Of a stretch of DNA of 64,000 nucleotides, positions 6,842 to 27,471 are shown piece by piece (positions within the stretch are counted from its first letter, which is position 1; each line of letters starts with the position of its first letter). The stretch is from Bacteroidales bacterium (GTDB lineage Bacteria; Bacteroidota; Bacteroidia; Bacteroidales; Lentimicrobiaceae). The position numbers were made by a program, and so were the translations under genes. The notes under the pieces were generated by a model, which saw only the letters and a list, made by a program, of their open reading frames with translations, did not search any database and had not been told where the DNA came from. Location of the stretch: positions 1 to 64,000 of the forward strand of contig JAEUTG010000046.1 in the NCBI GenBank assembly GCA_016788045.1. Reading direction: 5' to 3'.

Positions 6842-8464
6842 ATGAAAGTGAAGTTCCTTTTATTGATCTTGTTTTCAATTTCCTTTACATTTTGTAATAG
6901 CCAGCCTCTTATTATTGACTGGCAGAATTGTTTTGGGGGCCCAGGTAATGAGAAGGCATTTGACCTTGTAAGTACCGGCGATGGATATATAATCTTGGTT
7001 TCTCATTATGTTGATGAAATCCAGGGGCGTAATATTCAGTTGTTGAAGACGGATACCGGAGGCAATATTGTTTGGGAAAAATCATTGGGAGGAACAAAGT
7101 TCGATGAGCCCTGCCGAATTTTTAGTGCAGGTAATGGAAATTATTTCATAACAAGCGTTGCCACATCATCAGATGGCGACATTACTAACGACCCATATCC
7201 TACGGCTATGAATAACTGGATTCTTAAAATAAATGGGTCAGGCGAAATTTTATGGGAAAAGATTTACGGTGGAACGTGCATAGATAATGGAAATTTTGGA
7301 ACTACAACCTCCGATGGTAGTGTCATTGCATATTGTTACACATGTTCTGATGATGGTGATATCACGAATAATTATGGCAGTTACGATGCCTGGATGGTTA
7401 AAGTTGACAGTTTGGGCAACAAGGTATGGGACTTTACCATCGGCCATAATAATGGCGACTTTTCGAACGCTATTATTGAAACCTCAGACCGGGGTATTTT
7501 GGCGGCCTTACAGTCATATAGGGCTACCGGGGGTAATATTGAATGTGAATACTTCAATGAATACACCGATATCGTGTTGTTTAAATTGGATTCTGTGGCC
7601 AATATTGAATGGCAACAATGCTATGGAGGTAGCCAGATTGAATATGTGTATGATATAATTGAAACTACCGATGGGTATATATTGGCCGGAAGTGGGGAAT
7701 CTGATGACGGCGATCTTGCCGGGTCAGGATACCATTTAGGGTACGATAACAATGGTAATCAAACGAGTGATATCTGGTTGTTAAAGATTGATTTTACCGG
7801 CAACGTAATCTGGAGCAAATGCTATGGAGGAACAAGAAATGAATATGCTAATCGTGTTTTTCAAACCGGGGATGGCGGGTTTATTATATTTGGTGAAACC
7901 GGTTCTTTTGATGGTGATGTAACGGGCAATCATTCAGCCGGACCTGGTATCAGTGATATTTGGGTTATCAGAATTGATAGCATCGGACAACTATTATGGC
8001 AGCAATGTATCGGAGGCAATGGTTATGATCGCCTAGTATTAGGTGTTGTTGACAATGGGGATGGTAGTTTTGTAATCGCATCAACAATCTATGATTTTAA
8101 TTCTGGCCAGGTTGAATGCCCCACCACTAATGGAAGCGACCAGGTGTGGCTGATTAAAGTAATGGATACTACAGTTGTAAACATCCATGAAAAACCTCTT
8201 GCAGGAAATGGTGTTAAAGCTTATCCTAACCCAGCCAATGATTATGTGATATTTGAAGAAGTAGGGACACGGAATGTGGCGTCGAAAAAAGGCAATGAGC
8301 CAACATTACTCATTACCGATATTTATGGCCGTGCGGTCGCTCATTTATCTGTAATAGGTGATAAAACAATATGGGATGTAAGAGGAGTTGCACCAGGGGT
8401 GTATTTATACCAAATAATAAATGGCAGTATTTCTGACAAAGGAAAACTAATGATTTCACATTAA
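6842..8464 (+). CDS. Secreted beta-propeller-like repeat protein with T9SS sorting domain
   Basis: This is a 540-residue exported protein. The signal peptide (FLLLILFSISFTFCNS) ends near residue 20. The body is made of about six repeats of 50-80 residues, each with the pattern W-x-x-C-[FIY]-G-G, then TGDGYIL or a similar segment, then DGD and a D-x-W-[LMV]-[LIV]-[KR]-[LI]-[DN] strand. This suggests a beta-propeller related to proteins common in Bacteroidota and archaea. The last 80 residues (AYPNPANDYVIFEEV, ITDIYGRAV, VAPGVYLYQI) are a type A T9SS sorting domain. It follows the protease gene after a strong terminator, so it is probably transcribed separately. Its function is not known; an adhesive or binding role is a guess. 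Confidence 0.75.
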   Translation: MKVKFLLLILFSISFTFCNSQPLIIDWQNCFGGPGNEKAFDLVSTGDGYIILVSHYVDEIQGRNIQLLKTDTGGNIVWEKSLGGTKFDEPCRIFSAGNGNYFITSVATSSDGDITNDPYPTAMNNWILKINGSGEILWEKIYGGTCIDNGNFGTTTSDGSVIAYCYTCSDDGDITNNYGSYDAWMVKVDSLGNKVWDFTIGHNNGDFSNAIIETSDRGILAALQSYRATGGNIECEYFNEYTDIVLFKLDSVANIEWQQCYGGSQIEYVYDIIETTDGYILAGSGESDDGDLAGSGYHLGYDNNGNQTSDIWLLKIDFTGNVIWSKCYGGTRNEYANRVFQTGDGGFIIFGETGSFDGDVTGNHSAGPGISDIWVIRIDSIGQLLWQQCIGGNGYDRLVLGVVDNGDGSFVIASTIYDFNSGQVECPTTNGSDQVWLIKVMDTTVVNIHEKPLAGNGVKAYPNPANDYVIFEEVGTRNVASKKGNEPTLLITDIYGRAVAHLSVIGDKTIWDVRGVAPGVYLYQIINGSISDKGKLMISH

Positions 8465-13358: not shown

Positions 13359-15017
13359 TCAGAAACTTTTGCTTACCTGCAGAAAAATCCTGTTGAGCAG
13401 GTACCTTGAATCGTAATTGCCTTCGTAGTAAAATGAGCAGGACAGCTTCTTCATAACCTTCCAGTTGAGGCTGATTTCGCCGGAATGCTGCATCTGATTG
13501 TAATCGTTGCCGGTGTAGGTATAATCAGCAAAACGATAGGTAAATCCACCGCTGAGTTTTCCACGGATCAGGTCTCTGGAAAGACTGAGCGCAAAAACAT
13601 TGCCGTTGAGGTAGCTGGTACCGAGCAGTGTCGCAGACAGGGTGGCATTGATGCCGGTATAGGGTATCTGACTGTAGGTGGCATAAACATAAAGATTCTT
13701 TGAAGCAGCCGGATCTCCCTTCCTGAAACGGTACCCGCCGTTCGCACCCACCGCAAGCAATTTAAGCGGACGATAATTTACCTGAAGCAGCACTCCCTGT
13801 TGGGTTTCTTTTTCCAGCAGTTGTTCGATGAAGCTTTTATAGGTCTCGTAGTAAATAATGTTCTTTCGTGAACTGTACGAAACTGACACCGACATCCTGC
13901 TGCTGACCTTATACCGGAGAGAAAGATACATATTGGAAAGTTCCGGTGCTTTGTTGATTTCCTTCAGGGTGTCAGATTGGGGTAATAAACTATCGGTTAC
14001 TATTTTATACCGGTAGAGATCAAACTCTGTACTCCCGAAAAAACTAAGGTTTGGGATGAGCGTATTGCTGTGTTGCAGGTATGCAAAACGCCGGTCGGTG
14101 ACCCCTGAGTTCTTCTGTTCAACAAAAGCCAGGGTAGTTTGCAGGTTCCCGTGTGTTGATGTGGATTCATGACTTAAAAAAGCTCCGTATTGGAATAATT
14201 TTGTATTGAAACCGTAATTGCTGTAATCCGGCCTCGATCCGGCGAGCAGGCCGGTAGTAAAGTTGCGCGTTTTAAGCTCGAACTGAAGTCCGTCAACCGC
14301 GCCCATATTCGATAATTTCGGATTTATCTTCCGTCCTGCGACAATCCTGGCAGTTTTACCAAGGGCATAAGCCACCGACAGGTTGTAGATTTTAAGACCA
14401 TTGAAAACATTCTCCCTGATGTCGCCCCACCGCCCGTTTCTGTGCGAAAAGGTGACGTACGATTCAGCCGAAAACGCGGAACCGCCGATATTTTTGGCAT
14501 TCAGGAGCAGGTTGTACCTCATTCTCAGAGAATTGCCGTAGGAAGCTCCGGTAAGGTTGGTATAACTGGCAACGGAAACCCTGCCATAGATTGCTTCACT
14601 GTTCCGTTTTTTCGTATCCGTAGTTTTCTCAAGTGTATCAGCAGGGGAAGCCTGTTTTTCAACAGGTGGTTCGTTCACCGGAGCCGGATTCTTTTCAGTT
14701 TCAGGGTTTCCAGCTGCTTCGCGCTTATTCGTAAAAAAGATGCGGTCGTCCGAAGTGAACTTCCTATCGGTCAGCGGTTCACACACACAAGAGAAGGAGG
14801 AGCGTGCACTTACCCTGAGGGCGGCTTCTTTCCTGCCACCGATCATAATGTAAAGTGTATCTCCTTCTGCGATGTTCTCTGTGGTTTTAAACTTCACATA
14901 TACGTTTCGCGAAGTAACATAGGAAACAACCCCTTCAACAGGTTCTTTTGAATTCTGTGCTTTCAGTATCGGAGCAAAGAATAAACAGAGCAGTAAAATC
15001 CGGATTGAGGGCTTCAT
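13359..15017 (-). CDS. Outer-membrane beta-barrel, last gene of the multihaem operon
   Basis: This 552-residue protein is the last gene of the five-gene operon, 10 bp after the 37-haem cytochrome. A signal peptide (ILLLCLFFAPILKAQ) ends near residue 20. Residues about 25-95 form a small beta domain (VEGVVSYVTSRNVYVKF, NIAEGDTLYI). A Pro/Glu/Thr-rich linker follows to about 135, then some 410 residues with alternating hydrophobic and polar strands and aromatic girdles, ending in Phe (NRIFLQVSKSF). This is the form of an outer-membrane barrel of about 16-18 strands. By position it may be the porin that holds or anchors the cytochromes at the outer membrane, as MtrB-type porins do. No sequence resemblance to MtrB could be seen, so this role is inferred from context. 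Confidence 0.75.
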   Translation of the reverse strand: MKPSIRILLLCLFFAPILKAQNSKEPVEGVVSYVTSRNVYVKFKTTENIAEGDTLYIMIGGRKEAALRVSARSSFSCVCEPLTDRKFTSDDRIFFTNKREAAGNPETEKNPAPVNEPPVEKQASPADTLEKTTDTKKRNSEAIYGRVSVASYTNLTGASYGNSLRMRYNLLLNAKNIGGSAFSAESYVTFSHRNGRWGDIRENVFNGLKIYNLSVAYALGKTARIVAGRKINPKLSNMGAVDGLQFELKTRNFTTGLLAGSRPDYSNYGFNTKLFQYGAFLSHESTSTHGNLQTTLAFVEQKNSGVTDRRFAYLQHSNTLIPNLSFFGSTEFDLYRYKIVTDSLLPQSDTLKEINKAPELSNMYLSLRYKVSSRMSVSVSYSSRKNIIYYETYKSFIEQLLEKETQQGVLLQVNYRPLKLLAVGANGGYRFRKGDPAASKNLYVYATYSQIPYTGINATLSATLLGTSYLNGNVFALSLSRDLIRGKLSGGFTYRFADYTYTGNDYNQMQHSGEISLNWKVMKKLSCSFYYEGNYDSRYLLNRIFLQVSKSF

Positions 15018-15027
15018 GGCTGTTTCC

Positions 15028-17883
15028 TTAGTTTTGTCTGAATTCCTGTTTCCGTATCATGCTTTTACTGTCACCATCGGGGTGGCAGTTAAAGCAGGCA
15101 TTCGAGTTGTACTGGTATCCGCTCACCTCATCGTGTTCATCGTCCATTTCAGACTGGTTGTGTTCATGACAATCAATGCAACTGAACATGGCATAGTTTG
15201 ATGGATTGGTGTGACAGTCGGCGCATGAATTCCACTCTCCGTTGTGTTTGCCGGAATAGATCGGAAAATATTGATTGTCATGGTTAAATGTTGATGGCGT
15301 CCAGCCGTTTTCAGTATGGCAATCCTGGCAGGTAACCGGGAACTGGGCTGAAAGATGCGGCGGGTCATTCGTCTGGTTATAGGTATCTATATGACAATCC
15401 GCGCAGGTATTGGGTGTAGAATTATAGTTACCGTTGTGGCAGTCGGAACAATTGCCAGCAATCACCGCGTGGGCGCCATTCAGCGGGTAGTACTGGTTGT
15501 GGATGGGGAAGGTTGCCGGTTGCCAGCCCGGAAGGGTCGTATGGCAATCAGCACAGGTATTCGGCAAACCGAGTGACACATGATTCGGGTTAGCAGCCTG
15601 TGTATAGGCATTGGTATGGCAATCGCTGCACACGGCTGATGTTCCTGAGTAGCCACTGCTATGGCAGCCCTCGCAGCTTGCATTCACATGGGCGCCCGTG
15701 AGCGGGAAAGAGGTAGTGTTGTGGTCAAACCCCGCCGAAGCATCGCCGGTGGGATGACAGGCAAAGCAGGAGGGGGTATTGTAACTGTATCCGCCGATTC
15801 CCTGATGTTCACTGTTCATTTCGGCCTGGTTGTGGGCATGACAATCGATGCAACTGAACTGGCTGTAATCCGATGGATTCGTATGGCAATCAGAACAAAG
15901 GCTCCATTCTCCGTTGTGCTTTCCCGAGTAAACAGGGAAATACTGTCCGTCGTGATTGAATGTTGACGGCACCCAGCCATTTTCGGTATGGCAGGTCTGG
16001 CATTCGGTCGGGAACTGAGCCGATGCATGGGGAGGATTGGTCGTCTGGTTATAGCCTTCGATATGGCAACCGGCACAGGTGTTCGGGGTTGTAATGTAAT
16101 TACCGTTGTGGCAGGAGGCGCAATCGTTTGAAATGGTGGCATGGGCACCGTTCAGAGGGTAAACCTCATTGTGATCCGGGAAAGCAGCAGGCCGCCATCC
16201 GGGTTCTGTAGAATGACAATCCGCACAGGTATTCGGGATACCTGCCTGTTGATGGTTGGGATTGGTCGTCTGGTTATAGCTGCTCACATGGCAATCACCA
16301 CATACCAGGGTGGTGCCGGCATATCCGTTGGTATGACAATCAGCGCAGGCGGTAACCGTGTGTGCGCCGGTGAGCGGAAACGCTGTGTTGTTGTGATTAA
16401 AGCCGGAAGCTGCATCTCCGGTCGGATGACAGGAAAAGCAGGATGGACTGTCGTACAGGTATCCGTTTATGCCGGTATGTTCTTCATCCGTATCGGGTTT
16501 GTTGTGATCGTGGCAATCGATGCAACTGAACTGACCATAATCCGATGGATTGGTATGACAATCCGAGCATTGCTGCCATTCCCCGTTATGCTTACCTGAA
16601 TAGATCGGGAAATACTGACCGTCATGTTCAAATGTTGCTGGTTTCCAGGCTGTTTCCGCGTGACAAGTCAGGCATTCTGTAGAGAATTGTGAAGCGGCAT
16701 GCGGGGGATTGGTGGTCTGGTTATAATCTTCCAGGTGGCATCCGATACAGGTATTCGGCGTATTGTAGTAGTTGTTCTGATGGCACGATGCACAATTGTC
16801 AGCAATCAGGGCATGCGCCCCGTTGAGGGCATATACATCGTTGTGAGATGGAAAGCGGGCAGGGCTCCAGCCAGGAGCCGTAGTATGGCAGGTTTCGCAG
16901 GTGTTGGGCAAAGAAATCGAACCATGACTGGGGTTCGTTGTACTGTTGTAATCATCCTGATGACAGGCACTGCATGCTGTTGAGAGCGCTGTGTTGCCGT
17001 TGGTATGGCAATCCTCACACAAGGTGGAAGTATGTGCCCCTGTAAGCGGGAATCCGGTATTGTTGTGGTTAAAACTGCCATTTCCTGAACCGCTCGGGTG
17101 GCAGCCATAACAGGCGAGACTGTTGTAGCTGTATCCCGATACACCACCATGCTCATTGTCCATATCTCCCCGGTTGTGCTCGTGACAGCCTGTACAGCTG
17201 AATTCACCGTAATTGGCAGGATTCGTATGACAATCATTGCATTGATTCCACACCCCCTGGTGCTGGCCTGAATAGATCGGGAAATGCTCTGCATCATGTG
17301 CACTGAACTCCATCCAGGAATAGCCACTCACGAAATGACATTCTTCACAGTTGGTTGAATAGCCTGCTGTGAGGTGGTTTGGTTGTGTGGTTGACATATA
17401 GTCCTCCTGATGACAGGCGTAACATTCAACACTGAGCGGCTCGAAAATCAGGGAGGAGGCTGATTTATGACATTCGTCGCACGATGCCCCGGCATGGGCT
17501 CCCAGCAGCGGAAAGCGGGTTTGCTGGTGCAGCAGGGTAACATTGCTGATCAGCCATGATTCGGGTGTATGACACCTTTCACACTGATTGTCTGTTGTTT
17601 GCCCGTGGATATCGGTGTGGCAGGCGATGCAGGCAGGATCGGCTTCGTCAAAAACCAGCGATTCGTGGCATGACCTGCAGTTGGTTTGCCTGTGCATCCC
17701 GGTCAGCGGCATGGCAGTAACATCATGACTGAAGGTGATGCTGTCCTGATTTACCACCCAGCTATCGGTGACATGACACTCGGCACACCCGATGGTGAGG
17801 TCCTTCCCATGCGGGTTTGGTATCATCATCGTTAACGAGGTGAGGAATACCAGGGCTCCGGCAATTAATGACAGTTTTCGCAT
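15028..17883 (-). CDS. Giant multihaem c-type cytochrome with 37 CxxCH motifs
   Basis: This 951-residue protein has 37 CxxCH haem c attachment sites, counted by hand. Seven lie in an N-terminal part (residues 33-183). Nine lie in each of three consecutive 224-residue repeats (215-438, 439-662, 663-886), and three in a partial fourth repeat (887-951). Each repeat also holds about ten other His residues in fixed places (GAH, NPPH, FNHDGQYFP, GKHNGEW), enough for bis-His ligation of every haem. A signal sequence is present (LIAGALVFLTSLTMM); there is no lipobox and no T9SS domain. The recurring F-x-H-N-x-x-x-F-P-L-T-G-x-H-x4-CxxCH pattern resembles cytochrome c3/c7-like and doubled-CxxCH proteins. 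Such a chain would act as a periplasmic or surface haem wire. Its start overlaps the upstream cytochrome gene by 19 bp, so translation is probably coupled. Confidence 0.93.
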   Translation of the reverse strand: MRKLSLIAGALVFLTSLTMMIPNPHGKDLTIGCAECHVTDSWVVNQDSITFSHDVTAMPLTGMHRQTNCRSCHESLVFDEADPACIACHTDIHGQTTDNQCERCHTPESWLISNVTLLHQQTRFPLLGAHAGASCDECHKSASSLIFEPLSVECYACHQEDYMSTTQPNHLTAGYSTNCEECHFVSGYSWMEFSAHDAEHFPIYSGQHQGVWNQCNDCHTNPANYGEFSCTGCHEHNRGDMDNEHGGVSGYSYNSLACYGCHPSGSGNGSFNHNNTGFPLTGAHTSTLCEDCHTNGNTALSTACSACHQDDYNSTTNPSHGSISLPNTCETCHTTAPGWSPARFPSHNDVYALNGAHALIADNCASCHQNNYYNTPNTCIGCHLEDYNQTTNPPHAASQFSTECLTCHAETAWKPATFEHDGQYFPIYSGKHNGEWQQCSDCHTNPSDYGQFSCIDCHDHNKPDTDEEHTGINGYLYDSPSCFSCHPTGDAASGFNHNNTAFPLTGAHTVTACADCHTNGYAGTTLVCGDCHVSSYNQTTNPNHQQAGIPNTCADCHSTEPGWRPAAFPDHNEVYPLNGAHATISNDCASCHNGNYITTPNTCAGCHIEGYNQTTNPPHASAQFPTECQTCHTENGWVPSTFNHDGQYFPVYSGKHNGEWSLCSDCHTNPSDYSQFSCIDCHAHNQAEMNSEHQGIGGYSYNTPSCFACHPTGDASAGFDHNTTSFPLTGAHVNASCEGCHSSGYSGTSAVCSDCHTNAYTQAANPNHVSLGLPNTCADCHTTLPGWQPATFPIHNQYYPLNGAHAVIAGNCSDCHNGNYNSTPNTCADCHIDTYNQTNDPPHLSAQFPVTCQDCHTENGWTPSTFNHDNQYFPIYSGKHNGEWNSCADCHTNPSNYAMFSCIDCHEHNQSEMDDEHDEVSGYQYNSNACFNCHPDGDSKSMIRKQEFRQN
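15031..17241 (-). repeat. Three tandem 672-bp repeats plus a partial fourth within the cytochrome gene
   Basis: Protein repeats of exactly 224 residues map to 16570-17241, 15898-16569 and 15226-15897. A partial unit follows at 15031-15225. Every unit has the same CxxCH spacing (15, 28, 31, 15, 25, 35, 15, 25 and 35 residues from one Cys to the next). This indicates in-frame tandem duplication of a nine-haem module. The two downstream full units look most alike. Confidence 0.9.
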
Positions 17884-19457
17884 TTCACATCCTTAAATTT
17901 ATACTGTCTGTATGGCTTCGGGCTGGCCTCAACCATCTTATGGCAATCGTTACAGGCTACATGAATGTGTTTCCCATCCAGCGGGAATCTTGTTTTGTTG
18001 TGATCAAATCCTGAAAGGGTCCAGTTTTCGGAAGAATGACACCGGGAACAATCGGTAAACCCGTCAACATCGTACTGCCCCGCATGGTTGTCTTCATGGC
18101 AACTGCTGCAGGTTTGCGGCGTACCGGTAAAGCTGATTTTACCGGGTTCCGCTTGTTCCTGTTTTGCATGACAGGAACGGCAGCTCTGATTTGCATGCGC
18201 TCCTGTAATTGCAAATCTGGTAAGAGAATGGTCAAAGGTAATGGCGGCCCAGCTACTCTCTGAATGACAGTTTCTGCAATCTGACCCGGGATAATACTTC
18301 TGATCAAGGTACTCTTTATGAATGTCTTCATGGCAATCGCGGCAAACCAGGCCAATCTCACGGAATGACCAGTTATCTGTTTTTTTGTGACAGGCAATGC
18401 AGGGAATCGCCAGATGTGCGCCGTTCAAAGGGAAACTGCCCTGATTGTGCATTTCAACAGTAAAAATTGTTTCTCCAAACCCGCTGTCGGTATGACATTC
18501 ACGGCAGTCCCTGATGTGGTTGTCCTGCCTGAACTGACCCTTATGGAAATCAGGATGACAATCGGAGCATTTCTGATGCGCCAAAGGCGTTGTATAACTG
18601 CCCTTGTGGCATGAAGCACAGCTAACCGAACTATGCCTGCCGGTAAGCGGAAACCGTGTCTGGTTGTGATTGAAACTGTTGGTTCCCTTTAACTGCCTGA
18701 AAGATTCTTCCGAATGACATTGCGTACAATGCTGGCCGAATTTATTGTCGTGCGGATCGGTATGGCAGTCGGTACAGTTTTTAAACGGGAACCCTGTAAA
18801 CTGCTGGAAATTTTTACCGTTTCGGGTGCTTTTCTTATGACAATCAATACATTGTGTATCAAGATGCTTCCCTTTCAGCCTGAAGCCGGCTTTGTTGTGG
18901 TCAAACCTGCCGGCAGGTTTAAATTTAACATTGTCGTGGCAGTCAGCGCAATTCTCCGACAGGGTCTTCTGGTGATAATCTTCATGACAGGTAAGGCATA
19001 ACGCGTTAAGTCCCAGGTAGGTGTTCTTCTTTTTTCTGATAACCGGATCTTTGATGTTGGCAGCTTTGTGACAATCCTCACATTTTTTTTCAGCATGGGC
19101 TCCGGTTAATTTATATCCCGCCAGGTTATGATCAAACTTAAGCTTGTCGAAGCGGATAATCTCGAAATTCCGGCCATGGTGGTCGCTGTGGCATAGCGTG
19201 CATGATTTTCCGAGAACCTTTGATGAGGAATGATACCCCTTTTTCTGAGCAACCCGGACATTGATTTCCTTATGGCACGAAAGGCATTTGTCGTTCGACA
19301 CCTTTGCCCCCAGTGTATGGCATTTCGTGCAGTTCGACATTCCTTCAAGGTGGGCATGAACCTGGGCAAGGTCACCCGGTGACAGCTGAGCCCTGCCTGC
19401 CTGCGTCAATATGAGCAGCGATATGAGTATGTAAAGCCGGTAGCGTCTTATTTTCAT
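17865..19457 (-). CDS. Multihaem c-type cytochrome with 20 CxxCH motifs
   Basis: This 530-residue exported cytochrome has 20 CxxCH sites by hand count, the first at residue 43 and the last at the very C-terminus, where CENCH ends the protein. The signal peptide (LYILISLLILTQAGRAQ) ends near residue 23. The spacing is less regular than in the next gene, but the same F-D-H-N-x-x-x-F-x-L-x-G-K-H-x4-CxxCH unit recurs (FDHNKAGFRLKGKH, FNHNQTRFPLTGRH, FDHNKTRFPLDGKH). The two cytochromes therefore share an ancestry. It lies 13 bp after the oxidoreductase gene and overlaps the 37-haem gene by 19 bp. A likely role is periplasmic transfer of electrons from the inner-membrane proteins to the larger cytochrome. 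The exact donor and acceptor are unknown. Confidence 0.93.
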   Translation of the reverse strand: MKIRRYRLYILISLLILTQAGRAQLSPGDLAQVHAHLEGMSNCTKCHTLGAKVSNDKCLSCHKEINVRVAQKKGYHSSSKVLGKSCTLCHSDHHGRNFEIIRFDKLKFDHNLAGYKLTGAHAEKKCEDCHKAANIKDPVIRKKKNTYLGLNALCLTCHEDYHQKTLSENCADCHDNVKFKPAGRFDHNKAGFRLKGKHLDTQCIDCHKKSTRNGKNFQQFTGFPFKNCTDCHTDPHDNKFGQHCTQCHSEESFRQLKGTNSFNHNQTRFPLTGRHSSVSCASCHKGSYTTPLAHQKCSDCHPDFHKGQFRQDNHIRDCRECHTDSGFGETIFTVEMHNQGSFPLNGAHLAIPCIACHKKTDNWSFREIGLVCRDCHEDIHKEYLDQKYYPGSDCRNCHSESSWAAITFDHSLTRFAITGAHANQSCRSCHAKQEQAEPGKISFTGTPQTCSSCHEDNHAGQYDVDGFTDCSRCHSSENWTLSGFDHNKTRFPLDGKHIHVACNDCHKMVEASPKPYRQYKFKDVKCENCH

Positions 19458-19470
19458 CAGGTAACTTCCG

Positions 19471-20802
19471 CTAATGTTTCAGAATTGCATCCCCGAATTT
19501 TTTGGTAATCTGTATCCCCGCTTTCATCAGGAACTGGGTGGGTAATTCTCCGCCGGCAAAAATGTATACCAGGTCGTTCGGAATGGTAACCGCTTCTCCG
19601 GTGTCGCTGTTAAGCAGGGTGATGTCTGTTTTGCCGATCTCCGTTACGGTAGTGTTGAACCTGATTTCCGGCTTTCCTTCCTGCGCTGCCTTCACTATCC
19701 GCTCATTGTTCCGGGGTTTAATGCGGCTGAAGGCATTGCCGCGATAAGCCAGAATTACATGATTCTTGTCGGAAAGCAACAGTGCCGATTCAATGGCAGA
19801 GTCTCCACCGCCCACAACGACAATCTCCTTTCCGCTGATTTCTTCGGGTTCCAGAAGGCGGTAAGCGACTTTTTCCTGCATTTCACCCGCGACATCCAGT
19901 TTTCGGGGTGTGCCCCTGCGGCCGATGGCGAGCAGTATGCTTTTGGCTGTATGGATTTCGCCGTTAAGGGTTTTTACCTCAAAATAGTCATCCTTGCGGA
20001 GTATTTCATCAACTTTGGAGTTCTCTTTAATTTCAATACTGTTTTTTGACAAGGCATCCTGCCACAGATTCAGCAATTCGGTTTTGCTGGTTTCGAATAA
20101 CTTAACCTTACCGTAAAGGGGCAATTCCATGGCTGAAGTCATGATGATTTTGGAGCGGGGAAAGGTATAGATGGTTCCCCCCAGCGTGTCCTGTTCAAGT
20201 GTAAGGCACTTGAGCCTGTTCTTTTTTGCAGTGAGGCTGGCAGATATGCCTGCAGGTCCGGCTCCAACCACGATCAGATCATAATCAGCCTGATGATGCA
20301 CTCCGGCAGTTCTCGCGATGTTGTCAACTGCCTGACGGCCCTGTTCAACAGCATTTTTGATGAGGCCCATTCCTCCAAGTTCCCCCGCAATAAAAATACC
20401 GGGTACATTGGTTTCAAAGGTCTGGTTAACATGTGGAAGTTCCACACCCCGTTTTTCAGTACCAATACATAAGGTAATGGCCTGGGTAGGGCAGGCGTGA
20501 AAGCAGGCCCCATGACCTATACACCGGGAAGCATTCACCGTGGTAGCTTTCCCGTTTACAATTCCAAGAATGTCTTTCTCCGGACAGGCAGCCACACAGG
20601 CACCAGTCCTGATACAACTGTTGACATCAATTACCGGATGAAGCGAAACCGGCTCATACAGCCCCTCCAGTTTTGCCTTTTCAATTTTCTCCCTGACAAT
20701 GCCGGAATTCCGGCGTTGTTTACGCACATAAAGGAAAATCACCAGCCCGCAAAGCAGGAAAGCTGTCCCGTAAATGATGATGCTTTCAAGAAGTTGTTCC
20801 AT
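19471..20802 (-). CDS. Membrane-anchored ferredoxin/FAD-NAD(P) oxidoreductase
   Basis: About 443 residues from the ATG at 20802; an alternative GTG lies at 20817, overlapping the upstream gene. One N-terminal membrane helix (IIIYGTAFLLCGLVIFLYV) is followed by a ferredoxin-like domain (CIRTGACVAACP and CIGHGACFHACP). A thioredoxin-reductase-like flavoprotein fills the rest: an FAD-binding VVGAGPAGISASLTA motif, a GRRGTPRKLDV stretch, and a second nucleotide-binding motif VVGGGDSAIESALL. The usual second Cys of each cluster motif (CxxCxxCxxxCP) is Thr in the first and His in the second, which I recall from related proteins of this class. It probably moves electrons between NAD(P)H or ferredoxin and the membrane cytochrome b-like partner, but the direction is unknown. 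Confidence 0.85.
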   Translation of the reverse strand: MEQLLESIIIYGTAFLLCGLVIFLYVRKQRRNSGIVREKIEKAKLEGLYEPVSLHPVIDVNSCIRTGACVAACPEKDILGIVNGKATTVNASRCIGHGACFHACPTQAITLCIGTEKRGVELPHVNQTFETNVPGIFIAGELGGMGLIKNAVEQGRQAVDNIARTAGVHHQADYDLIVVGAGPAGISASLTAKKNRLKCLTLEQDTLGGTIYTFPRSKIIMTSAMELPLYGKVKLFETSKTELLNLWQDALSKNSIEIKENSKVDEILRKDDYFEVKTLNGEIHTAKSILLAIGRRGTPRKLDVAGEMQEKVAYRLLEPEEISGKEIVVVGGGDSAIESALLLSDKNHVILAYRGNAFSRIKPRNNERIVKAAQEGKPEIRFNTTVTEIGKTDITLLNSDTGEAVTIPNDLVYIFAGGELPTQFLMKAGIQITKKFGDAILKH

Positions 20803-20804
20803 AC

Positions 20805-21686
20805 TCAAAAAATCCACCTGTAACCGAAAACGATGGTAACAGCAATATGAATGATCATGATAATCAGCATGATAATGGCAAAAGGTAAATGAGCCACATG
20901 CCAGTACCTGAACAGATTCTGCATAAAGAGCAGGCGGTCGATTTTACGGTTCAGCGAAACTTCATTCCTGACCAGTTTAAGCACTTGCCTGATTTCAGTT
21001 TTGTTCAGGTTCTTACCTTTCAGGCTCTTTCTGACAGACCGGATGGTTGAAAAATCATCGAAATAATTCTTTGTATAACGCCAGAACAGGATTCCCTCTT
21101 CAAGCTCAGCCTTTTTGCGTGTCGATTCAATGATCAGGTTATAACTCATTTCATCCAGCTTGTACCCCGATGATAATACATCACCAAGGTTGCTTTTCAT
21201 CTCGCGCACTTCATTCAGCGTTAATTCGCGGCCTTCTATACTTCGTGGTATCTGAATGTAGATAAATCTGCCGATGATTCCGCTCAGGAATACAGCCACC
21301 ATACTCCAGAAACTGATAGCAACCAGCCCCCCGAACTTGAAGGAGGTATGAAACAGAATCAGCAATGGGCCCAGGGTACACAGAAAAATATGAAATTCGA
21401 GCCAGTGCTTTAGCAGCCCAAGCCTCGAAAGCGATCTGACCCTTTTTCTGAGCACATAAATCAGAACCCCGACGAGCATCAACAACGATCCGAAAATTCC
21501 GAGACCATGCCCCCATGAACCGCTGGGCTTAAGGGCAGCGTAATCGGGATGGAAGAACCTTTCTTCAACAGGAACCCTGTAATAGGAGATGCCTTTTTGC
21601 AGAATATAGACCAACACCAGTGCCACAATGGCAATCAATGCTAAAATGTAAATACGGTGTGCTTTTCCCATTTCTGAACAGTTCAT
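20805..21686 (-). CDS. Cytochrome b-like inner membrane protein, first gene of multihaem operon
   Basis: This 293-residue membrane protein has five or six helices. His residues lie in helix-forming stretches: KHWLEFHIFLCTLGPLLILF, then HTSF, and near the end YWHVAHLPFAII followed by an MIIHIAV segment. This arrangement fits a di-haem b-type electron carrier. Between helices 4 and 5 is a charged cytoplasmic region of about 100 residues (EGRELTLNEVREMKSNLGD... to SLNRKIDRLL) that could dock the next gene's ferredoxin/FAD protein. The stop lies 2 bp before the ATG of that gene. A quinone-linked role is inferred from context; no named family was matched with certainty. Confidence 0.72.
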   Translation of the reverse strand: MNCSEMGKAHRIYILALIAIVALVLVYILQKGISYYRVPVEERFFHPDYAALKPSGSWGHGLGIFGSLLMLVGVLIYVLRKRVRSLSRLGLLKHWLEFHIFLCTLGPLLILFHTSFKFGGLVAISFWSMVAVFLSGIIGRFIYIQIPRSIEGRELTLNEVREMKSNLGDVLSSGYKLDEMSYNLIIESTRKKAELEEGILFWRYTKNYFDDFSTIRSVRKSLKGKNLNKTEIRQVLKLVRNEVSLNRKIDRLLFMQNLFRYWHVAHLPFAIIMLIIMIIHIAVTIVFGYRWIF

Positions 21687-22015: not shown

Positions 22016-23125
22016 TCACAAGGCTACATTGTATGCTCCGGCGGTCAGAATCTGTCCCTCAGGCAGATCGCCCATAACCTCTGTGTAGCCGTTGCTTTGC
22101 CGTCCTGTATTAATTTCTGATTTTTTGAAAAAGTAATTTCCCTTTTCCTGTTTTTTCAACACCAGCACAGCGTAACCGGCTTCAGTTTTCAGAATAGCTG
22201 CAGTGGGCAGGGCATTGGACATTTCTGCAACAGTCACGATTTCTGCTTCAATATAATCGCCTGAAACTACGTGTGAATTTTGTGGATTGTCAATGTCGGC
22301 ATAGCACAGGATTGTTCTGGTGTCCTCATCAACACTCACCCCGACAGCACTGATACGGGCAGTTCCTGCTACAGGTGCATCAGCCGGTTTAAACCTGACT
22401 GTCTGACCAACTTTCAGGCTGGCCACATCACCTGAAAAAACAGATAGTTTGAGCTGTACCTTTCCGGGATCGGTGATCCCGGCAACCACTGTCTGTGGAT
22501 CTATATACTGTCCGATTGAAGCATCAAGCCCTGATACATAGCCATCTAAAGGTGATTTTATCTGAAAATAATCATAAAAATTACCACTTTCAATCTGCTC
22601 TGCTTCGAATCCGAGGGCCTTTACCTTCAGTTTTGCAGCAGTATAAACAGCCAGCGCAGACTTAAAACTGCTTTCAGTTTCCACGAAATCCTTCTCTGAG
22701 GTAACCGACTCTTTAAAAAGTGCTTTTGCCCGCTCGTATTCAATGCTGAGGCGATGATACCTGGCTGCCGCCTCAGCATAGTCCTTTTGAATGTCAATAA
22801 CCTCTGTGCCGGAAACCGTCAGGAGGGGCTGGTTCTTGCTGACATACTGACCATTGCGGCACAATATACTCCGGATGATTCCCGACAGGGGAGTGCCAGC
22901 CAGGGCCGTGCCTCCTGCTACCGGTTCGATGGTACCGGTTGACTTAACAATGCTCTCAAACTCCTTATTTTCAATACGTCCAAGGCTCATTCCATCGGTG
23001 GTAAATTGCTTTCCGGTAATCTCAATGAAGGAGCTTTCAACCTCCGGTGCTTCTGCTGTTCCCGAACAGGACCAGAACAGGAGGGCGCCAACGGAAGTAA
23101 ACAGAATAAGTTTTGCAGATTTCAT
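22016..23125 (-). CDS. cusB: RND efflux periplasmic adaptor, CusB/CzcB type
   Basis: This 369-residue membrane-fusion protein links the inner-membrane pump to the outer-membrane channel. The signal SVGALLFWSC has a lipobox-like Cys near residue 20. The barrel-sandwich halves are visible (GGTALAGTPLSGIIRSILCR and FQIKSPLDGYVSGLDASIGQ), separated by a coiled-coil hairpin rich in Ala, Glu and Lys (residues about 112-175). A beta-barrel domain follows (VQLKLSVFSGDVASLKVGQT), then a membrane-proximal end. It begins 5 bp after the pump gene, so the two form one operon. The family and neighbour point to monovalent copper/silver or divalent zinc/cobalt/cadmium export; the metal cannot be fixed from what I see. 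Confidence 0.88.
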   Translation of the reverse strand: MKSAKLILFTSVGALLFWSCSGTAEAPEVESSFIEITGKQFTTDGMSLGRIENKEFESIVKSTGTIEPVAGGTALAGTPLSGIIRSILCRNGQYVSKNQPLLTVSGTEVIDIQKDYAEAAARYHRLSIEYERAKALFKESVTSEKDFVETESSFKSALAVYTAAKLKVKALGFEAEQIESGNFYDYFQIKSPLDGYVSGLDASIGQYIDPQTVVAGITDPGKVQLKLSVFSGDVASLKVGQTVRFKPADAPVAGTARISAVGVSVDEDTRTILCYADIDNPQNSHVVSGDYIEAEIVTVAEMSNALPTAAILKTEAGYAVLVLKKQEKGNYFFKKSEINTGRQSNGYTEVMGDLPEGQILTAGAYNVAL

Positions 23126-23130
23126 GATGT

Positions 23131-26100
23131 TTATTTTGAAAGATAGTTTAATTCAAGGGTCACTGAACTGAACTCAAGCAGGTTATTCAGGTATTCCAGT
23201 TTCAGTTGGAATGCAGTTTCGGTGCTGGCTGCATACCGGTAGAAATCAATTTCGCCTGTATCAAAGCCAAACTGTGCAGTTCTCAGTATCTCAGTGTAGA
23301 GTGTACTTCCCGACTCTTCATATTCTTTTAACCACTGACTTAAACGGTGGTAGTTGTTGAAAAGCTCCTGCTGCCTGGTTTTCAGTTGTATGGTTTCGTT
23401 AGCGTTCAGTTGCCTGGTTGCTTCCAGTGCCAGTTCTGAAGACCTGATTTTCGATTTCTGAGGCCCGAAAAACAGGGGAACAGCCAGTCCGGCCTCAAAT
23501 CCGTGATAGATGCGGGCACTTTCGTATTTGTTTGTACCGAGAAAGTAGGAAAGCTGAAGATCGGGAAGCAGTTTTTTTCGCTCTACGGCCAGGGAATGCT
23601 GGCTTAGCTTTTCACTGTTTCGGAGCTGTATTGTAAACGGAAGCGAATCAATGTTCCTGTTATTCAGGTCAATACGCTGAATTCCCGGTGATACGGTAAA
23701 AGGACCGTCAAGTCCCATCAAAGCACTGAGTCTCAGCATGGCATTATCGATGTTGCTGAGAATTCCGTTCATGAGTTGCCTTGTCTGCTGCTGCCTTGCT
23801 TTGGTATTCAGCAGATCAAGCCTGGTGATATCCCCTTTGCTTTGACGCAGGGCCGAACCTTTCAGTACTTCCATATAGAGGCTGTCGAGATACCGGTACA
23901 GCCGGAGTTTCTCATTCAGGATCTGAATATCCAGGTAGGTCAGGGATACCTGCTTCGCTATCTGTTCCTGCTTCACATTGCTCTCGCTGAATGCAAGCTG
24001 ATGGATGGCTTTCTGTTCTTTCCGGCGGGAAGCATAAAGCGATGGGAAACTGAAATTCTGCGATACGCCCCATACTGTCAGTGGGTGATTGTTGGCTGCA
24101 ATGTTGTTCTGATCGGTTCCAACCGAAAAAACGGTTTTTTCAGGATCGAAGGAAGTAGGGATCAGGGCCTTTTTTTCTTCGGTCATCAAGGCAAACGCTT
24201 TGAGTTCCGGGTTATTCAGCCTGGCCAGTTCAAGAGCCTCGCCGAAACTGATTTGTTTCTGCTGGGCAGAGGCCATCGCGGTAGGAATCGCAATCAACAG
24301 TATTACAAGGCCTTGTCTTCCCCTGATAATCCTGAACGGGAAAAAGCGGACAGATTTAATGTTATAGAAAAGTTCAAACAATATCGGCAGTGCGATCATG
24401 GTCAGCATGGTTGACGTAAAAAGACCTCCGATCACCACTGTTGCCAGCGGTCGTTGTACTTCAGCCCCGGCACCGTTCGAAATTGCCATTGGCAAAAAAC
24501 CCATGGCAGCCGCCCCGGCAGTAAGCATTACCGGCCGAAGCCTGTCTTTCGCACCCATGATGATCAGTTCCCTGAATGAATGAGTGCCTTCACTTTTTAA
24601 CTCCTTCAGATGTTCTATCAGAACGATTCCGTTCAGCACGGCTATCCCAAACAAAGCAATAAAACCAACACCGGCAGATACACTGAAGGGCATATCGCGC
24701 AGCCAGAGCAGAAAGACACCACCTACCGTTGCCAGGGGGATAGCCGTAAAGATCATAATGGCATCTTTAAACGATTGAAAGGCAAAATGCAGGAAAATGA
24801 AAATCAGCAACAAGGCCACAGGAACAGCCACCAGCAGGCGGTTGGTTGCATTCTGCAGGTTTTCGAACTGCCCGCCGTAAGCAATATATGTACCAGGCCT
24901 CAGCGTAATGTTTTTATCAACAGTAGCCTGAATATCTTTTACTACCGACTGCAGATCCCGGTTGCGGACATTTACACTCACCACAACCCTGCGATGGGTG
25001 TTCTCCCGGGAGATTTTTGCCGGTCCTGATGAATATTCAATGGTGGCCAGTTCAGAAAGGGGGATCAGCAAACCATCGTTAACCGGAACCTTCATCTGCT
25101 GGATGTCGTTGATGTCAGTCCGGTTTTTTGTGTCGAACCGCACAACCAGGTCAAAGCGTTTCTCACCTTCAAATACTACACCTGCAGCTTCTCCGCCGAA
25201 TGCCGCCGCGAGGTGTGCGTTCAGCTTACTGATATCCGCTCCGTAGTAAGCAATCTTACTCCTGTTGTAGTCAATTTTTATCTGCGGTAATCCGGCTGTT
25301 TTCTCGAGAATCACATCTCCCGCACCGGGAATATGCTCAATAAGTTTTTTGATTTCATTTGCCTTCTTATCGATATATTCCAGATCATCTCCGAAAATCT
25401 TGATGGCGATATCGGAACGGACACCGGTAATCAGTTCGTTAAAGCGCATTTCAATCGGCTGGGTAAATTCATATTCAATGCCAGGGATTGCCGACAAGGA
25501 GTCTTTAAACCGTTCGGCGAGCTCTTCTTTGCTGCCGGCACTGGTCCATGTTTTTCGGGGCCTGAGTTTGATAATCATATCAATTTCTTCCATCGACATA
25601 GGATCAGTCGGAACTTCAGCGGCCCCGATTCTGCTAACAATTTTATCCACTTCCGGAAAACCCTTTATGAGGATCTGTTCCATTTTCGTGGTTGTTTCAA
25701 TGGTTTTCGAGAGTGAAGTACCTGTCTTAAGTACAGGCTGTATCACAAAATCACCCTCATCGAGGGTCGGCACAAATTCGCCCCCCATTCTGGTAAACAG
25801 GAAGCCTGTCAGCAGTAATGACAGAAGCGCAGCGCCCAAAACAGTTTTTTTGTGGCAACATGCCCACCGGATAACCGGAAGATAGGTTCTGTGTGCCAGG
25901 CTGAGAAACCAGTCAGCGATGGTTCTCTTATCCGATGTTGAAGGCCGCAGAAACAACGAAGAGGCTACCGGTAACCAGGTCAGGCCCATAATCATGGCTC
26001 CGATGATCGCAAAGCAGAACGACAATGCCATGGGTCTGAACATTTTGCCTTCAACGCCGGTAAGGGAAAGAATCGGAATAAAAACAATCAGAATAATGAT

Positions 26101-27471
26101 CTGCCCGAACAAGGCAGATTTCATCATCCTTGAAGCTCCGTCAAACGCAACAGTATCCATCAGATTCATCCGTGCCTCTCCTGTTGTTTCCCTGATTTCA
26201 CTTTTCATCACTGAAATACGCAAAGCAATGAATTCTACAATAATCACCGCCCCATCAATAATAATCCCGAAATCAAGAGCACCCAGGCTCATCAGGTTGG
26301 CATCGATCCCGAAAATATACATCATGGCGATGGTAAAAAGCAACGATAGCGGAATCATTGATGTGATTACCAAAGCTGAACGGAGATTTCCCAGAAGGAG
26401 CATCACGGTTAGCATGACGATGAGGGCGCCGAGAATCAGGTTCTCCACAACGGTAAAGGAAGTTTTGGCAACCAGTTCACTCCGGTCAACAATCGGATTG
26501 ATGAATACACCCTCAGGCAGGTTACCCTGAATCTCTTCAACCCGCTTCTTCACCTCATTGATGACTTCCCTCGAATTTGCATTCTTGAGCATCATCACCT
26601 GCCCCAGAATGGTTTCCCCTTTCCCGTTGGCCGTGATGGCCCCGTAGCGGTTGGCATGGCCTGTCTGAACACTGGCAATGTTCCTGATCAGCACAGGACT
26701 TCCCTTTATATTTTTAACAACAATATTTTCAATGTCTTCCGCGGACTTTACCTGGCCATCGCCGCGGATAAAATAGCTTTGGTTGGTTTTTTCAATGTAA
26801 GAACCGCCCGAAATACTGTTGTTCGACTCAAGGGCATCAAATACTTCCATCAGGGTTATGCCGGTTGCATTCAGCTTCTCAGGGTTTATTGATACTTCAT
26901 ATTGTTTGAGCAATCCGCCCCAGCTGTTGATTTCAACCACCCCATTAATGCCCGAAAGCCTTCGCTTTACCACCCAGTCCTGAATGGTCCTTAACTCCGT
27001 GGCAGAATACCGGTCTTCATATCCCTCCTTCACATCGAGTGTATACTGATAAATCTCACCGAGACCGGTGGTCACTGGTCCCATTTCAGGTTCACCAAAC
27101 CCTTCAGGAATGCTTGCTGAAGCACTTTTTAGTTTTTCTGCAATCAACTGACGGGGAAGATAAGTTCCTGATTTTTCATCGAATACAATGGTTACCAGCG
27201 ATATTCCGAATTTAGAAACGGATCTTATTTCCTTAACCCCAGGTAAATTTGCCATCTCCATCTCAACAGGTGCAGTAATATACTGCTCGATTTCCTGGGT
27301 CGAAAGGTTCCCTGAAGTGGTGATCACCTGAACCTGATTGTTGGTAATATCCGGAACTGCACCTACCGGGATCCTGAACACGGCATACAATCCGAAGGAA
27401 GCAACAGTTAATGTAAACAGAATGATAATCAGCTTATTCTTAATACTGAAGTCAATAATTTTCTCTAGCAT
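23131..27471 (-). CDS. cusA: CusA/CzcA-type RND metal pump fused to a TolC-like outer-membrane factor
   Basis: This 1446-residue fusion has two parts. Residues 1 to about 1040 are a heavy-metal efflux RND transporter: an N-terminal helix, two large periplasmic loops, twelve membrane helices and the helix-4 proton-relay segment DFGIIIDGAVIIVEF. From about 1045 a hydrophobic stretch that still looks like a signal peptide (LVILLIAIPTAMASAQQ) leads into about 390 residues of outer-membrane-factor type, with long helical pairs (FGEALELARLNNPELKAF; RQLNANETIQLKTRQQEL). The fused order is known in Bacteroidota. The former signal peptide would serve as a thirteenth helix placing the TolC-like part in the periplasm. 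The adaptor gene follows within 5 bp. Confidence 0.9.
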   Translation of the reverse strand: MLEKIIDFSIKNKLIIILFTLTVASFGLYAVFRIPVGAVPDITNNQVQVITTSGNLSTQEIEQYITAPVEMEMANLPGVKEIRSVSKFGISLVTIVFDEKSGTYLPRQLIAEKLKSASASIPEGFGEPEMGPVTTGLGEIYQYTLDVKEGYEDRYSATELRTIQDWVVKRRLSGINGVVEINSWGGLLKQYEVSINPEKLNATGITLMEVFDALESNNSISGGSYIEKTNQSYFIRGDGQVKSAEDIENIVVKNIKGSPVLIRNIASVQTGHANRYGAITANGKGETILGQVMMLKNANSREVINEVKKRVEEIQGNLPEGVFINPIVDRSELVAKTSFTVVENLILGALIVMLTVMLLLGNLRSALVITSMIPLSLLFTIAMMYIFGIDANLMSLGALDFGIIIDGAVIIVEFIALRISVMKSEIRETTGEARMNLMDTVAFDGASRMMKSALFGQIIILIVFIPILSLTGVEGKMFRPMALSFCFAIIGAMIMGLTWLPVASSLFLRPSTSDKRTIADWFLSLAHRTYLPVIRWACCHKKTVLGAALLSLLLTGFLFTRMGGEFVPTLDEGDFVIQPVLKTGTSLSKTIETTTKMEQILIKGFPEVDKIVSRIGAAEVPTDPMSMEEIDMIIKLRPRKTWTSAGSKEELAERFKDSLSAIPGIEYEFTQPIEMRFNELITGVRSDIAIKIFGDDLEYIDKKANEIKKLIEHIPGAGDVILEKTAGLPQIKIDYNRSKIAYYGADISKLNAHLAAAFGGEAAGVVFEGEKRFDLVVRFDTKNRTDINDIQQMKVPVNDGLLIPLSELATIEYSSGPAKISRENTHRRVVVSVNVRNRDLQSVVKDIQATVDKNITLRPGTYIAYGGQFENLQNATNRLLVAVPVALLLIFIFLHFAFQSFKDAIMIFTAIPLATVGGVFLLWLRDMPFSVSAGVGFIALFGIAVLNGIVLIEHLKELKSEGTHSFRELIIMGAKDRLRPVMLTAGAAAMGFLPMAISNGAGAEVQRPLATVVIGGLFTSTMLTMIALPILFELFYNIKSVRFFPFRIIRGRQGLVILLIAIPTAMASAQQKQISFGEALELARLNNPELKAFALMTEEKKALIPTSFDPEKTVFSVGTDQNNIAANNHPLTVWGVSQNFSFPSLYASRRKEQKAIHQLAFSESNVKQEQIAKQVSLTYLDIQILNEKLRLYRYLDSLYMEVLKGSALRQSKGDITRLDLLNTKARQQQTRQLMNGILSNIDNAMLRLSALMGLDGPFTVSPGIQRIDLNNRNIDSLPFTIQLRNSEKLSQHSLAVERKKLLPDLQLSYFLGTNKYESARIYHGFEAGLAVPLFFGPQKSKIRSSELALEATRQLNANETIQLKTRQQELFNNYHRLSQWLKEYEESGSTLYTEILRTAQFGFDTGEIDFYRYAASTETAFQLKLEYLNNLLEFSSVTLELNYLSK

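What the first reader, a model, noticed from the sequence alone, without database searches (positions are those of the whole stretch)
15028..17883. 37-haem cytochrome made of three 224-residue nine-haem repeats
Seen: 37 CxxCH sites by hand count; three in-frame repeats of exactly 224 residues (672 bp) plus a partial fourth, with the same spacing and about ten further His per unit. Inference: modular growth by tandem duplication made a long haem wire. Comparison point: well-known conduit cytochromes carry far fewer haems (about ten in Mtr-type proteins).
Basis: seen in the sequence. Interest (0 to 1): 0.82.

Follow-up and report, generated by a model that had tools for sequence, protein, structure and literature searches.

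The report
Haem wire built from three-haem modules
A Bacteroidota genome encodes a 37-haem electron-carrying protein that belongs to a family whose members hold 10 to 88 haems, almost always three times a whole number plus one, so this bacterial "wire" has lengthened and shortened in whole three-haem steps while the other parts of its membrane-crossing machine stayed the same.

Summary
Confirmed: window 15028-17883 (-) is one 951-aa ORF with 37 CxxCH sites and an exact 224-aa period. The reading needs correcting. The unit of growth is a ~75-aa three-haem module; the 224-aa nine-haem block is only this lineage's duplication block. Among 103 complete orthologues, 97 have 3n+1 haems (10 to 88; CxxxCH counted), including 27 of 28 in a set fetched after the rule was seen. 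Blocks of one to five modules were copied in different lineages. Close relatives differ by whole modules (49 vs 34 haems with 94%-identical partner proteins). The units here are old (at most 76% DNA identity), so an assembly artefact is unlikely. The gene sits in a conserved five-gene operon: di-haem cytochrome b, Fe-S/FAD oxidoreductase, 20-haem cytochrome, 37-haem cytochrome, 22-stranded outer-membrane barrel. The cytochrome b carries the signature motifs of the published porin-cytochrome type PCC3, whose outer cytochromes already reach 85 haems. So this is a five-gene Bacteroidota variant of a known kind of conduit. What looks new is the strict triplet ladder, which published Gallionellaceae PCC3 counts do not follow. 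AlphaFold2 failed on the cytochrome (pLDDT 39.5); wire shape, position and electron direction remain inference.

The parts
20805..21686 (-). Inner-membrane di-haem cytochrome b (IMP), 293 aa, five predicted TM segments; first gene of the operon
   Evidence: WX3HX13H at aa 95 (WLEFHIFLCTLGPLLILFH) and aa 262 (WHVAHLPFAIIMLIIMIIH), SGIIG at aa 135; motifs conserved in nearly all of 45 relatives; alignment A6; no Pfam match
19471..20817 (-). Membrane-anchored oxidoreductase, 448 aa: N-terminal TM (8-33), two 4Fe-4S motifs (about 60-115), FAD/NAD(P)-binding pyridine-nucleotide oxidoreductase domain (about 180-440)
   Evidence: Pfam Fer4_10 and Pyr_redox_3 E=6e-42; TM by hydropathy; two Fe-S motifs in all 50 relatives
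17865..19457 (-). 20-haem c-type cytochrome, 530 aa, Sec signal peptide; presumed periplasmic carrier
   Evidence: 20 CxxCH; orthologues nearly always hold 20 or 23 haems; alignment A5; its 3' end overlaps the next gene by 19 bases
15028..17883 (-). 37-haem c-type cytochrome, 951 aa, presumed outer conduit or wire: 12 three-haem modules plus one haem
   Evidence: Pfam Cytochrome_C7 E=1.8e-31
17284..17883 (-). Conserved N-terminal part (aa 1-200, 7 haems) including the Sec signal peptide; present in every orthologue used
16441..17112 (-). Nine-haem unit 1 (aa 258-481), three modules, 10 extra His
15769..16440 (-). Nine-haem unit 2 (aa 482-705), three modules, 10 extra His
15097..15768 (-). Nine-haem unit 3 (aa 706-929), three modules, 10 extra His
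15031..15330 (-). Conserved C-terminal cap (aa 852-951, four haems, ends CxxCHPxG); last haem makes the +1 of 3n+1
13359..15017 (-). Outer-membrane beta-barrel protein, 552 aa: signal peptide, small N-terminal beta domain (27-95), 22-stranded barrel (142-551)
   Evidence: AlphaFold2 on 43 orthologues, mean pLDDT 81.7; best structural matches are TonB-dependent receptor barrels, Z about 19-20; directly downstream of the large cytochrome in most relatives

Best explanation
The 37-haem protein is the outer cytochrome of a PCC3-type porin-cytochrome conduit. It forms a chain of bis-histidine c-haems that carries electrons across and probably beyond the outer membrane, held by the 22-stranded barrel encoded next to it. 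Proposed route: NAD(P)H or another cytosolic donor, to the membrane-anchored Fe-S/FAD protein, to two b-haems in the IMP, to the 20-haem periplasmic cytochrome, to the 37-haem cytochrome in and beyond the barrel, to an outside acceptor (metal oxide, humics or another cell). The reverse direction, electron uptake, is possible. The chain grows and shrinks by copying or deleting whole three-haem modules, singly or in blocks of two to five, between a conserved N-terminal part (7 haems) and a conserved C-terminal cap (4 haems). Partial-module changes are almost never seen, probably because they would break haem-to-haem spacing. Shown: gene order, motifs, module structure, quantised haem number, recent duplications, predicted barrel fold. 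Inferred: haem loading, extended shape, insertion in the barrel, direction, and reach as the selected property.
For: 37 CxxCH and 42 non-motif His, at least three per triplet, enough for bis-His ligation of every haem. 70 of 75 complete orthologues have 3n+1 haems when CxxxCH is counted; 60 of 74 with CxxCH only. In a later set found with the IMP profile, not the cytochrome, 27 of 28 new complete orthologues fit, 10 to 64 haems, several on chromosome-size contigs. At least 26 changes of haem number on a 43-tip tree of the non-haem partners; 49 vs 34 haems at 94% partner identity, 88 vs 82 at 96%. Block size one to five modules by lineage. Five-gene operon complete in 25 of 34 loci with enough flank. 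IMP has all the published PCC3 motifs. 22-strand barrel model. Full operon plus a CcsA-like cytochrome c assembly gene on a complete Emticicia oligotrophica plasmid.
Against: No usable structure for the cytochrome (pLDDT 39.5), so linearity is unproven. No solved structure is close in sequence (best is a 16-haem cytochrome, 1z1n, E=8e-6; GSU1996 E=0.31). No direct sequence comparison with named PCC3 proteins was possible. No expression, haem-content or electrochemical data. Three genes of the haem-copper oxidase family in the genome leave the direction open.
Confidence: 0.75

Rival explanations
1. Electron store (capacitor): the many haems hold charge in the periplasm when outside acceptors are missing, and length sets capacity rather than reach.
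For: The same idea is published for GSU1996 (PMC10138318) and for large MHCs (PMC7399161, PMC11495043). Haem number varies widely while the partner genes stay.
Against: Regular co-occurrence with a beta-barrel directly downstream. The shortest members hold 10 haems, as many as the membrane-spanning MtrA, which suggests a conduit core. Storage alone would not demand whole triplets. The two roles do not exclude each other.
Confidence: 0.15
2. Electron uptake: the conduit takes electrons from Fe(II), Mn(II) or another outside donor to feed aerobic respiration or NAD(P)+ reduction.
For: PCC3 was described in and proposed for Fe(II) oxidisers (PMC5566968, PMC10734462); its inner-membrane gene rises with iron oxidation in Sideroxydans CL21 (PMC12442390). 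This genome has oxidase-family genes, and a relative carries the operon on a plasmid although Emticicia is an aerobe (from memory).
Against: The extra Fe-S/FAD NAD(P)-type oxidoreductase in the operon fits electron input from the cytosol more simply; uptake to NAD(P) would be uphill. Relatives include Ignavibacteria/Melioribacter, a group linked to iron reduction in the literature (PMC7399161).
Confidence: 0.3
3. Assembly artefact: collapsed or expanded near-identical repeats created the number 37.
For: Repeats are a known assembly hazard; some relatives' contigs end inside the array (L039, L055, L128, L129).
Against: Units here share at most 76% DNA identity over 210 bp. L034, from a separately named MAG record, is 99% identical at the protein level and also has 37. 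A complete isolate plasmid and chromosome-size contigs also obey 3n+1.
Confidence: 0.02

Closest known systems
PCC3 porin-cytochrome complex of Proteobacteria (He et al. 2017, PMC5566968; Gallionellaceae survey PMC10734462)
   Same: Porin + very large outer cytochrome (median 34, up to 85 haems) + periplasmic cytochrome (median 21) + ~300-aa inner-membrane protein with five TM helices, SGXXG on TM4 and WX3HX13H on TM3 and TM5; repeats in the cytochromes; variable haem number.
   Different: Here in Bacteroidota, Ignavibacteria and neighbours; a fifth gene, Fe-S/FAD oxidoreductase, is part of the operon; outer cytochrome nearly always 3n+1 haems, whereas published Gallionellaceae outer subunits have 10-18, 26, 28, 29, 33 and 35; periplasmic partner 20 or 23 rather than 21, 24 or 27; modelled barrel 22 strands, whereas PCC3 porins are predicted to have up to 42.
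Burkholderiales porin + 24-haem + 49-haem cluster (PMC7399161)
   Same: Same order of smaller and larger cytochrome before the porin; larger cytochrome differs between close relatives by insertion or deletion of CxxCH domains while partners are 96-98% identical.
   Different: Three genomes only; no triplet rule stated; different phylum.
GSU1996 / GSU0592, 12-haem cytochromes of Geobacter (PMC10138318)
   Same: Single chain made of repeated three-haem domains in a line; 12 haems in about 12 nm.
   Different: Periplasmic, one His-Met haem per domain; c7 haem spacing differs (about 24-14 from memory; here 15-25-35); no significant sequence match (3ov0 E=0.31).
MtrCAB of Shewanella
   Same: Cytochrome-in-barrel electron conduit; the shortest family members here hold 10 haems, like MtrA.
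   Different: Barrel has no Pfam match; cytochrome scores far below the DmsE/MtrA cut-off (41 vs 192 bits); no MtrC-type outer subunit in the operon.
Giant Saprospiraceae / ANME multihaem cytochromes (PMC11495043, PMC9012536)
   Same: Very high haem number in one chain (over 100, and 86).
   Different: ANME ones carry S-layer domains and no porin; the Saprospiraceae ones were counted without operon or module analysis and may be members of the present family.

Membership tests
PCC3 porin-cytochrome complex | ~300-aa inner-membrane protein, five TM helices, SGXXG on TM4, WX3HX13H on TM3 and TM5 | tested here: met
   293 aa; five TM regions by hydropathy; WX3HX13H at 95 and 262, SGIIG at 135; 42 of 45 relatives have both W motifs plus SGXXG
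PCC3 porin-cytochrome complex | Two large multihaem cytochromes with low residue-to-haem ratio (22-39, median 26) | tested here: met
   37 haems in 951 aa (25.7) and 20 haems in 530 aa (26.5)
PCC3 porin-cytochrome complex | Outer-membrane beta-barrel porin in the same cluster | tested here: met
   552-aa gene directly downstream; 22-strand barrel model, pLDDT 81.7
PCC3 porin-cytochrome complex | Sequence homology of the components to named PCC3 proteins (e.g. Sideroxydans lithotrophicus ES-1) | not testable with these tools
PCC3 porin-cytochrome complex | Function in extracellular electron transfer | not testable with these tools
   Not demonstrated experimentally for PCC3 in the papers read either
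MtrAB/MtoAB/PioAB | Barrel of the MtrB/PioB family | tested here: not met
   No Pfam family at E<=0.001 for the barrel protein
MtrAB/MtoAB/PioAB | Decahaem DmsE/MtrA-family cytochrome | tested here: not met
   TIGR03508 41 bits (37-haem) and 32 bits (20-haem) against a cut-off of 192
GSU1996-type c7 cytochrome | Chain of c7 three-haem domains | tested here: inconclusive
   Three-haem modules and Pfam Cytochrome_C7 above cut-off, but haem spacing differs and 3ov0 is not significant (E=0.31); the structure prediction failed
OmbB-OmaB-OmcB (Geobacter PCC) | Barrel homologous to OmbB | not tested
   No OmbB model or sequence in the libraries used
Polymerised cytochrome filaments (OmcS, OmcE, OmcZ) | Filament of many copies of a small cytochrome | tested here: inconclusive
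   Profile search against PDB sequences lists no OmcS/OmcE/OmcZ chain at E<=1; polymerisation itself cannot be tested here

The most novel reading that the evidence does not exclude
A single-molecule, length-adjustable wire: lineages tune how far electrons reach outside the cell (roughly 10 to 90 nm if about 1 nm per haem, as in GSU1996) by adding or removing three-haem modules, fed directly from cytosolic NAD(P)H through the Fe-S/FAD protein and cytochrome b without the quinone pool: a machine like a transmembrane NADPH oxidase with an extending outer arm.
Probability: 0.2. Interest if true: 0.82.

Novelty: new variant of a known kind. Interest (0 to 1): 0.55.

Why it matters
It turns an anecdote (a large haem number) into a rule that can be tested: in this family haem number moves in threes, so the three-haem module is the structural quantum of the conduit. 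Nature has made a length series from 10 to 88 haems with the same partner proteins, which would allow length, conductance and reach to be compared directly. A cultured host with a complete plasmid (Emticicia oligotrophica DSM 17448, 40 haems) makes the work possible. It also extends PCC3-like conduits to Bacteroidota with a predicted cytosolic entry point. PMC7399161 called variation in haem number an unexplored area of protein evolution; this is a clean case.

Tried and rejected
AlphaFold2 on the 37-haem protein with 23 aligned sequences failed (mean pLDDT 39.5, pTM 0.19); nothing was built on it, and no fold search was run on it. The nine-haem block as the basic unit was rejected because counts fall in all three mod-9 classes that fit 3n+1 and other block sizes dominate elsewhere. 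A chance explanation for 3n+1 was rejected (binomial p about 1e-27 ignoring relatedness; at least 26 changes on the tree). The idea that 3n+1 is general to PCC3 was rejected on published Gallionellaceae counts. Exceptions were examined: most strict-count exceptions carry a CxxxCH site (e.g. CTTSCH) that restores 3n+1; L072 has one degenerate CxxCN site; L081 and L083 are divergent Neomarinimicrobiota; L022 and L032 (12 haems) and L163 (11) remain unexplained. MtrB does not appear among the listed barrel fold hits, and OmcS and GSU1996 are not significant PDB sequence hits, which shows nothing either way. A claim of record haem number was rejected: over 100 are reported (PMC11495043). An idea that the 740-aa IMP-bearing ORFs in a second phylum are IMP-FAD fusions was tested and not supported.

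Full report
Observation. The ORF at 15028-17883 (minus strand) is 951 aa with a Sec-type N-terminus and 37 CxxCH sites; the only other CxxCH-bearing ORF over 60 aa in the window is its neighbour, with 20. A self-comparison peaks sharply at an offset of 224 residues (48% of all positions, 54-78% in most 50-residue windows of the repeated part), with echoes at 448 and 672; offsets one or two residues away give background. Three full units lie at residues 258-481, 482-705 and 706-929, with a partial unit before them. Each has nine haems and ten other His.

Unit of structure. Inside each 224-residue unit the haem spacing repeats every three haems (about 15-25-35), and weaker identity peaks appear at offsets 75 and 149-150. 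The whole protein divides into twelve triplets and one final haem; every triplet holds at least three non-motif His, and there are 42 for 37 haems, enough for bis-His ligation (the ligation itself is inference). DNA identity between units is at most 76% over 210 bp and Tandem Repeats Finder sees no array, so the units are old and safe from assembly collapse.

Relatives. Two searches found the protein in 36 of 247 genomes of the same order and in 61 loci of named assemblies: Bacteroidales, Saprospiraceae, Flavobacteriales, Ignavibacteria, Neomarinimicrobiota and one labelled Acidobacteria. A third hit is a complete plasmid of a cultured strain, Emticicia oligotrophica DSM 17448. Complete orthologues were defined by the conserved N-terminal 190 residues and checked for the C-terminal cap. 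Typical haem counts are 13, 16, 19, 22, 25, 28, 31, 34, 37, 40, 43, 46, 49, 58, 61, 67, 70, 73, 76, 82 and 88: all 3n+1. With CxxCH alone, 60 of 74 fit; when CxxxCH is also counted, 70 of 75. The rule was then tested on loci found through the cytochrome b profile rather than the haem protein: 27 of 28 new complete orthologues fit, from 10 to 64 haems, some on contigs of 3.6-4.2 Mb. These species are related, so a binomial p-value overstates independence; a tree of the non-haem partners needs at least 26 changes of haem number among 43 tips (in one search the tip L060 is labelled 13 but carries 31, corrected).

How the array changes. Identity between modules at different lags shows which block was copied. 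The window, L005, L006, L035, L037, L038 and L040 favour blocks of three modules (nine haems). Others favour one (L018, L077, L095), one to three (L069, L073), two (L008, L041, L074), four (L015, L048) or five (L051, L053). So the nine-haem repeat is one lineage's history; the quantum is the triplet. Close relatives show recent steps: L045/L046 (49) against L052 (34) with partner proteins 94% identical; L036 (88) against L038 (82) at 96%, the extra modules lying inside the array while the ends match module for module. In Emticicia, neighbouring 73-residue modules are 98.6% identical in DNA.

Operon. On the minus strand the order is cytochrome b (20805-21686), Fe-S/FAD oxidoreductase (19471-20817), 20-haem cytochrome (17865-19457), 37-haem cytochrome, barrel (13359-15017), with short overlaps or gaps. 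All four partners are found in 25 of 34 loci with enough flank; several of the rest have one partner further away or too divergent for BLAST. The periplasmic partner holds 20 or 23 haems in most loci. The barrel modelled well (pLDDT 81.7): 22 strands plus a small N-terminal domain, closest in shape to TonB-dependent receptor barrels (Z about 20). The large cytochrome did not model, so its shape is not known from this work.

Mechanism. Best reading: a trans-envelope electron conduit. The cytochrome b has four His in two HX13H pairs, as in ferric reductase and NADPH oxidase membrane domains (argument of PMC5566968). The Fe-S/FAD protein (Pyr_redox_3 plus two 4Fe-4S) suggests electrons from NAD(P)H or ferredoxin. 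The 20-haem protein would bridge the periplasm and the large cytochrome would pass through the barrel; family members as short as 10 haems (L138-L141) match the haem number of MtrA, which suggests that a core spans the membrane and the rest is extension. At about 1 nm per haem, as in GSU1996 (12 haems, 12 nm; PMC10138318), 37 haems would reach about 37 nm and 88 about 88 nm; this is extrapolation. Which end lies in the barrel, and the direction, are open. Oxidase-family genes in the genome and the PCC3 literature on iron oxidisers keep uptake possible.

Comparison. The anatomy matches PCC3 (PMC5566968): IMP motifs, two very large cytochromes, porin. PCC3 outer cytochromes have a median of 34 and a maximum of 85 haems; in Gallionellaceae they have 10-18, 26, 28, 29, 33 and 35 (PMC10734462), so the 3n+1 rule is not a PCC3 property but one of the present lineage. 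PCC3 clusters are described with four genes; the Fe-S/FAD gene is an addition. Variation in haem number of the larger cytochrome was seen in Burkholderiales (PMC7399161) and called unexplored; novel PCCs in Bacteroidetes were noted in bog lakes (PMC6344600); Saprospiraceae cytochromes with over 100 motifs were counted in sludge (PMC11495043). The kind is therefore known; the five-gene Bacteroidota variant and its triplet ladder were not found described in the papers read, which is not proof of absence.

Limits. Almost all relatives are metagenome assemblies; homology to named PCC3 proteins was not tested directly; the strict-count exceptions depend on accepting CxxxCH as a haem site; the 12-haem members L022 and L032 and the 11-haem L163 are unexplained.

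Noticed in passing
L034 (CALMDN010000115.1) against window 14.8-21.4 kb: The near-identical relative is a mosaic: the 5' part of the operon is about 80% identical in DNA, but from the middle of the 20-haem gene to the end of the 37-haem gene it is 95-100% identical. Either a recent recombination moved the cytochrome block between species or one of the assemblies is chimeric.
   Followed up: partly
L095 (NC_018749.1, Emticicia oligotrophica plasmid pEMTOL02) 2926-14724: The whole conduit operon, preceded by a CcsA/ResB-type cytochrome c assembly gene, sits on a plasmid, so the conduit may travel with its own haem-attachment machinery.
   Followed up: partly
L060 13624-14694; L058 15688-16701; L137 8673-14512: Some loci carry a second paralogue of the large cytochrome near the operon (13 haems beside 31; 13 beside 70; 19 and 34 together), all still 3n+1.
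   Followed up: no
L085 6627-9509: A 960-aa ORF joins the Fe-S/FAD protein and the 20-haem cytochrome in one frame; a real fusion or an assembly error.
   Followed up: no
L155-L162, L175 and others from genome G248's phylum: The cytochrome b profile finds clusters in another phylum with 21-, 27- or 30-haem cytochromes (multiples of three) and sometimes a 740-aa IMP-bearing ORF of unknown fusion partner.
   Followed up: partly
L038 and L039 (same Saprospiraceae MAG): Two contigs of one genome bin carry nearly the same operon with 82 and at least 72 haems (the second is cut by the contig end): duplicated operons or strain variants with broken arrays.
   Followed up: no
window 22016-27471 (-): Just upstream of the operon lie a CusB/HlyD-type adaptor and a 1446-aa RND-type pump whose C-terminus looks like a fused TolC-type channel; a metal efflux context next to an electron conduit.
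   Followed up: no
window 6842-8464 (+): 540-aa protein ending in what looks like a type IX secretion sorting domain, consistent with a Bacteroidota host.
   Followed up: no
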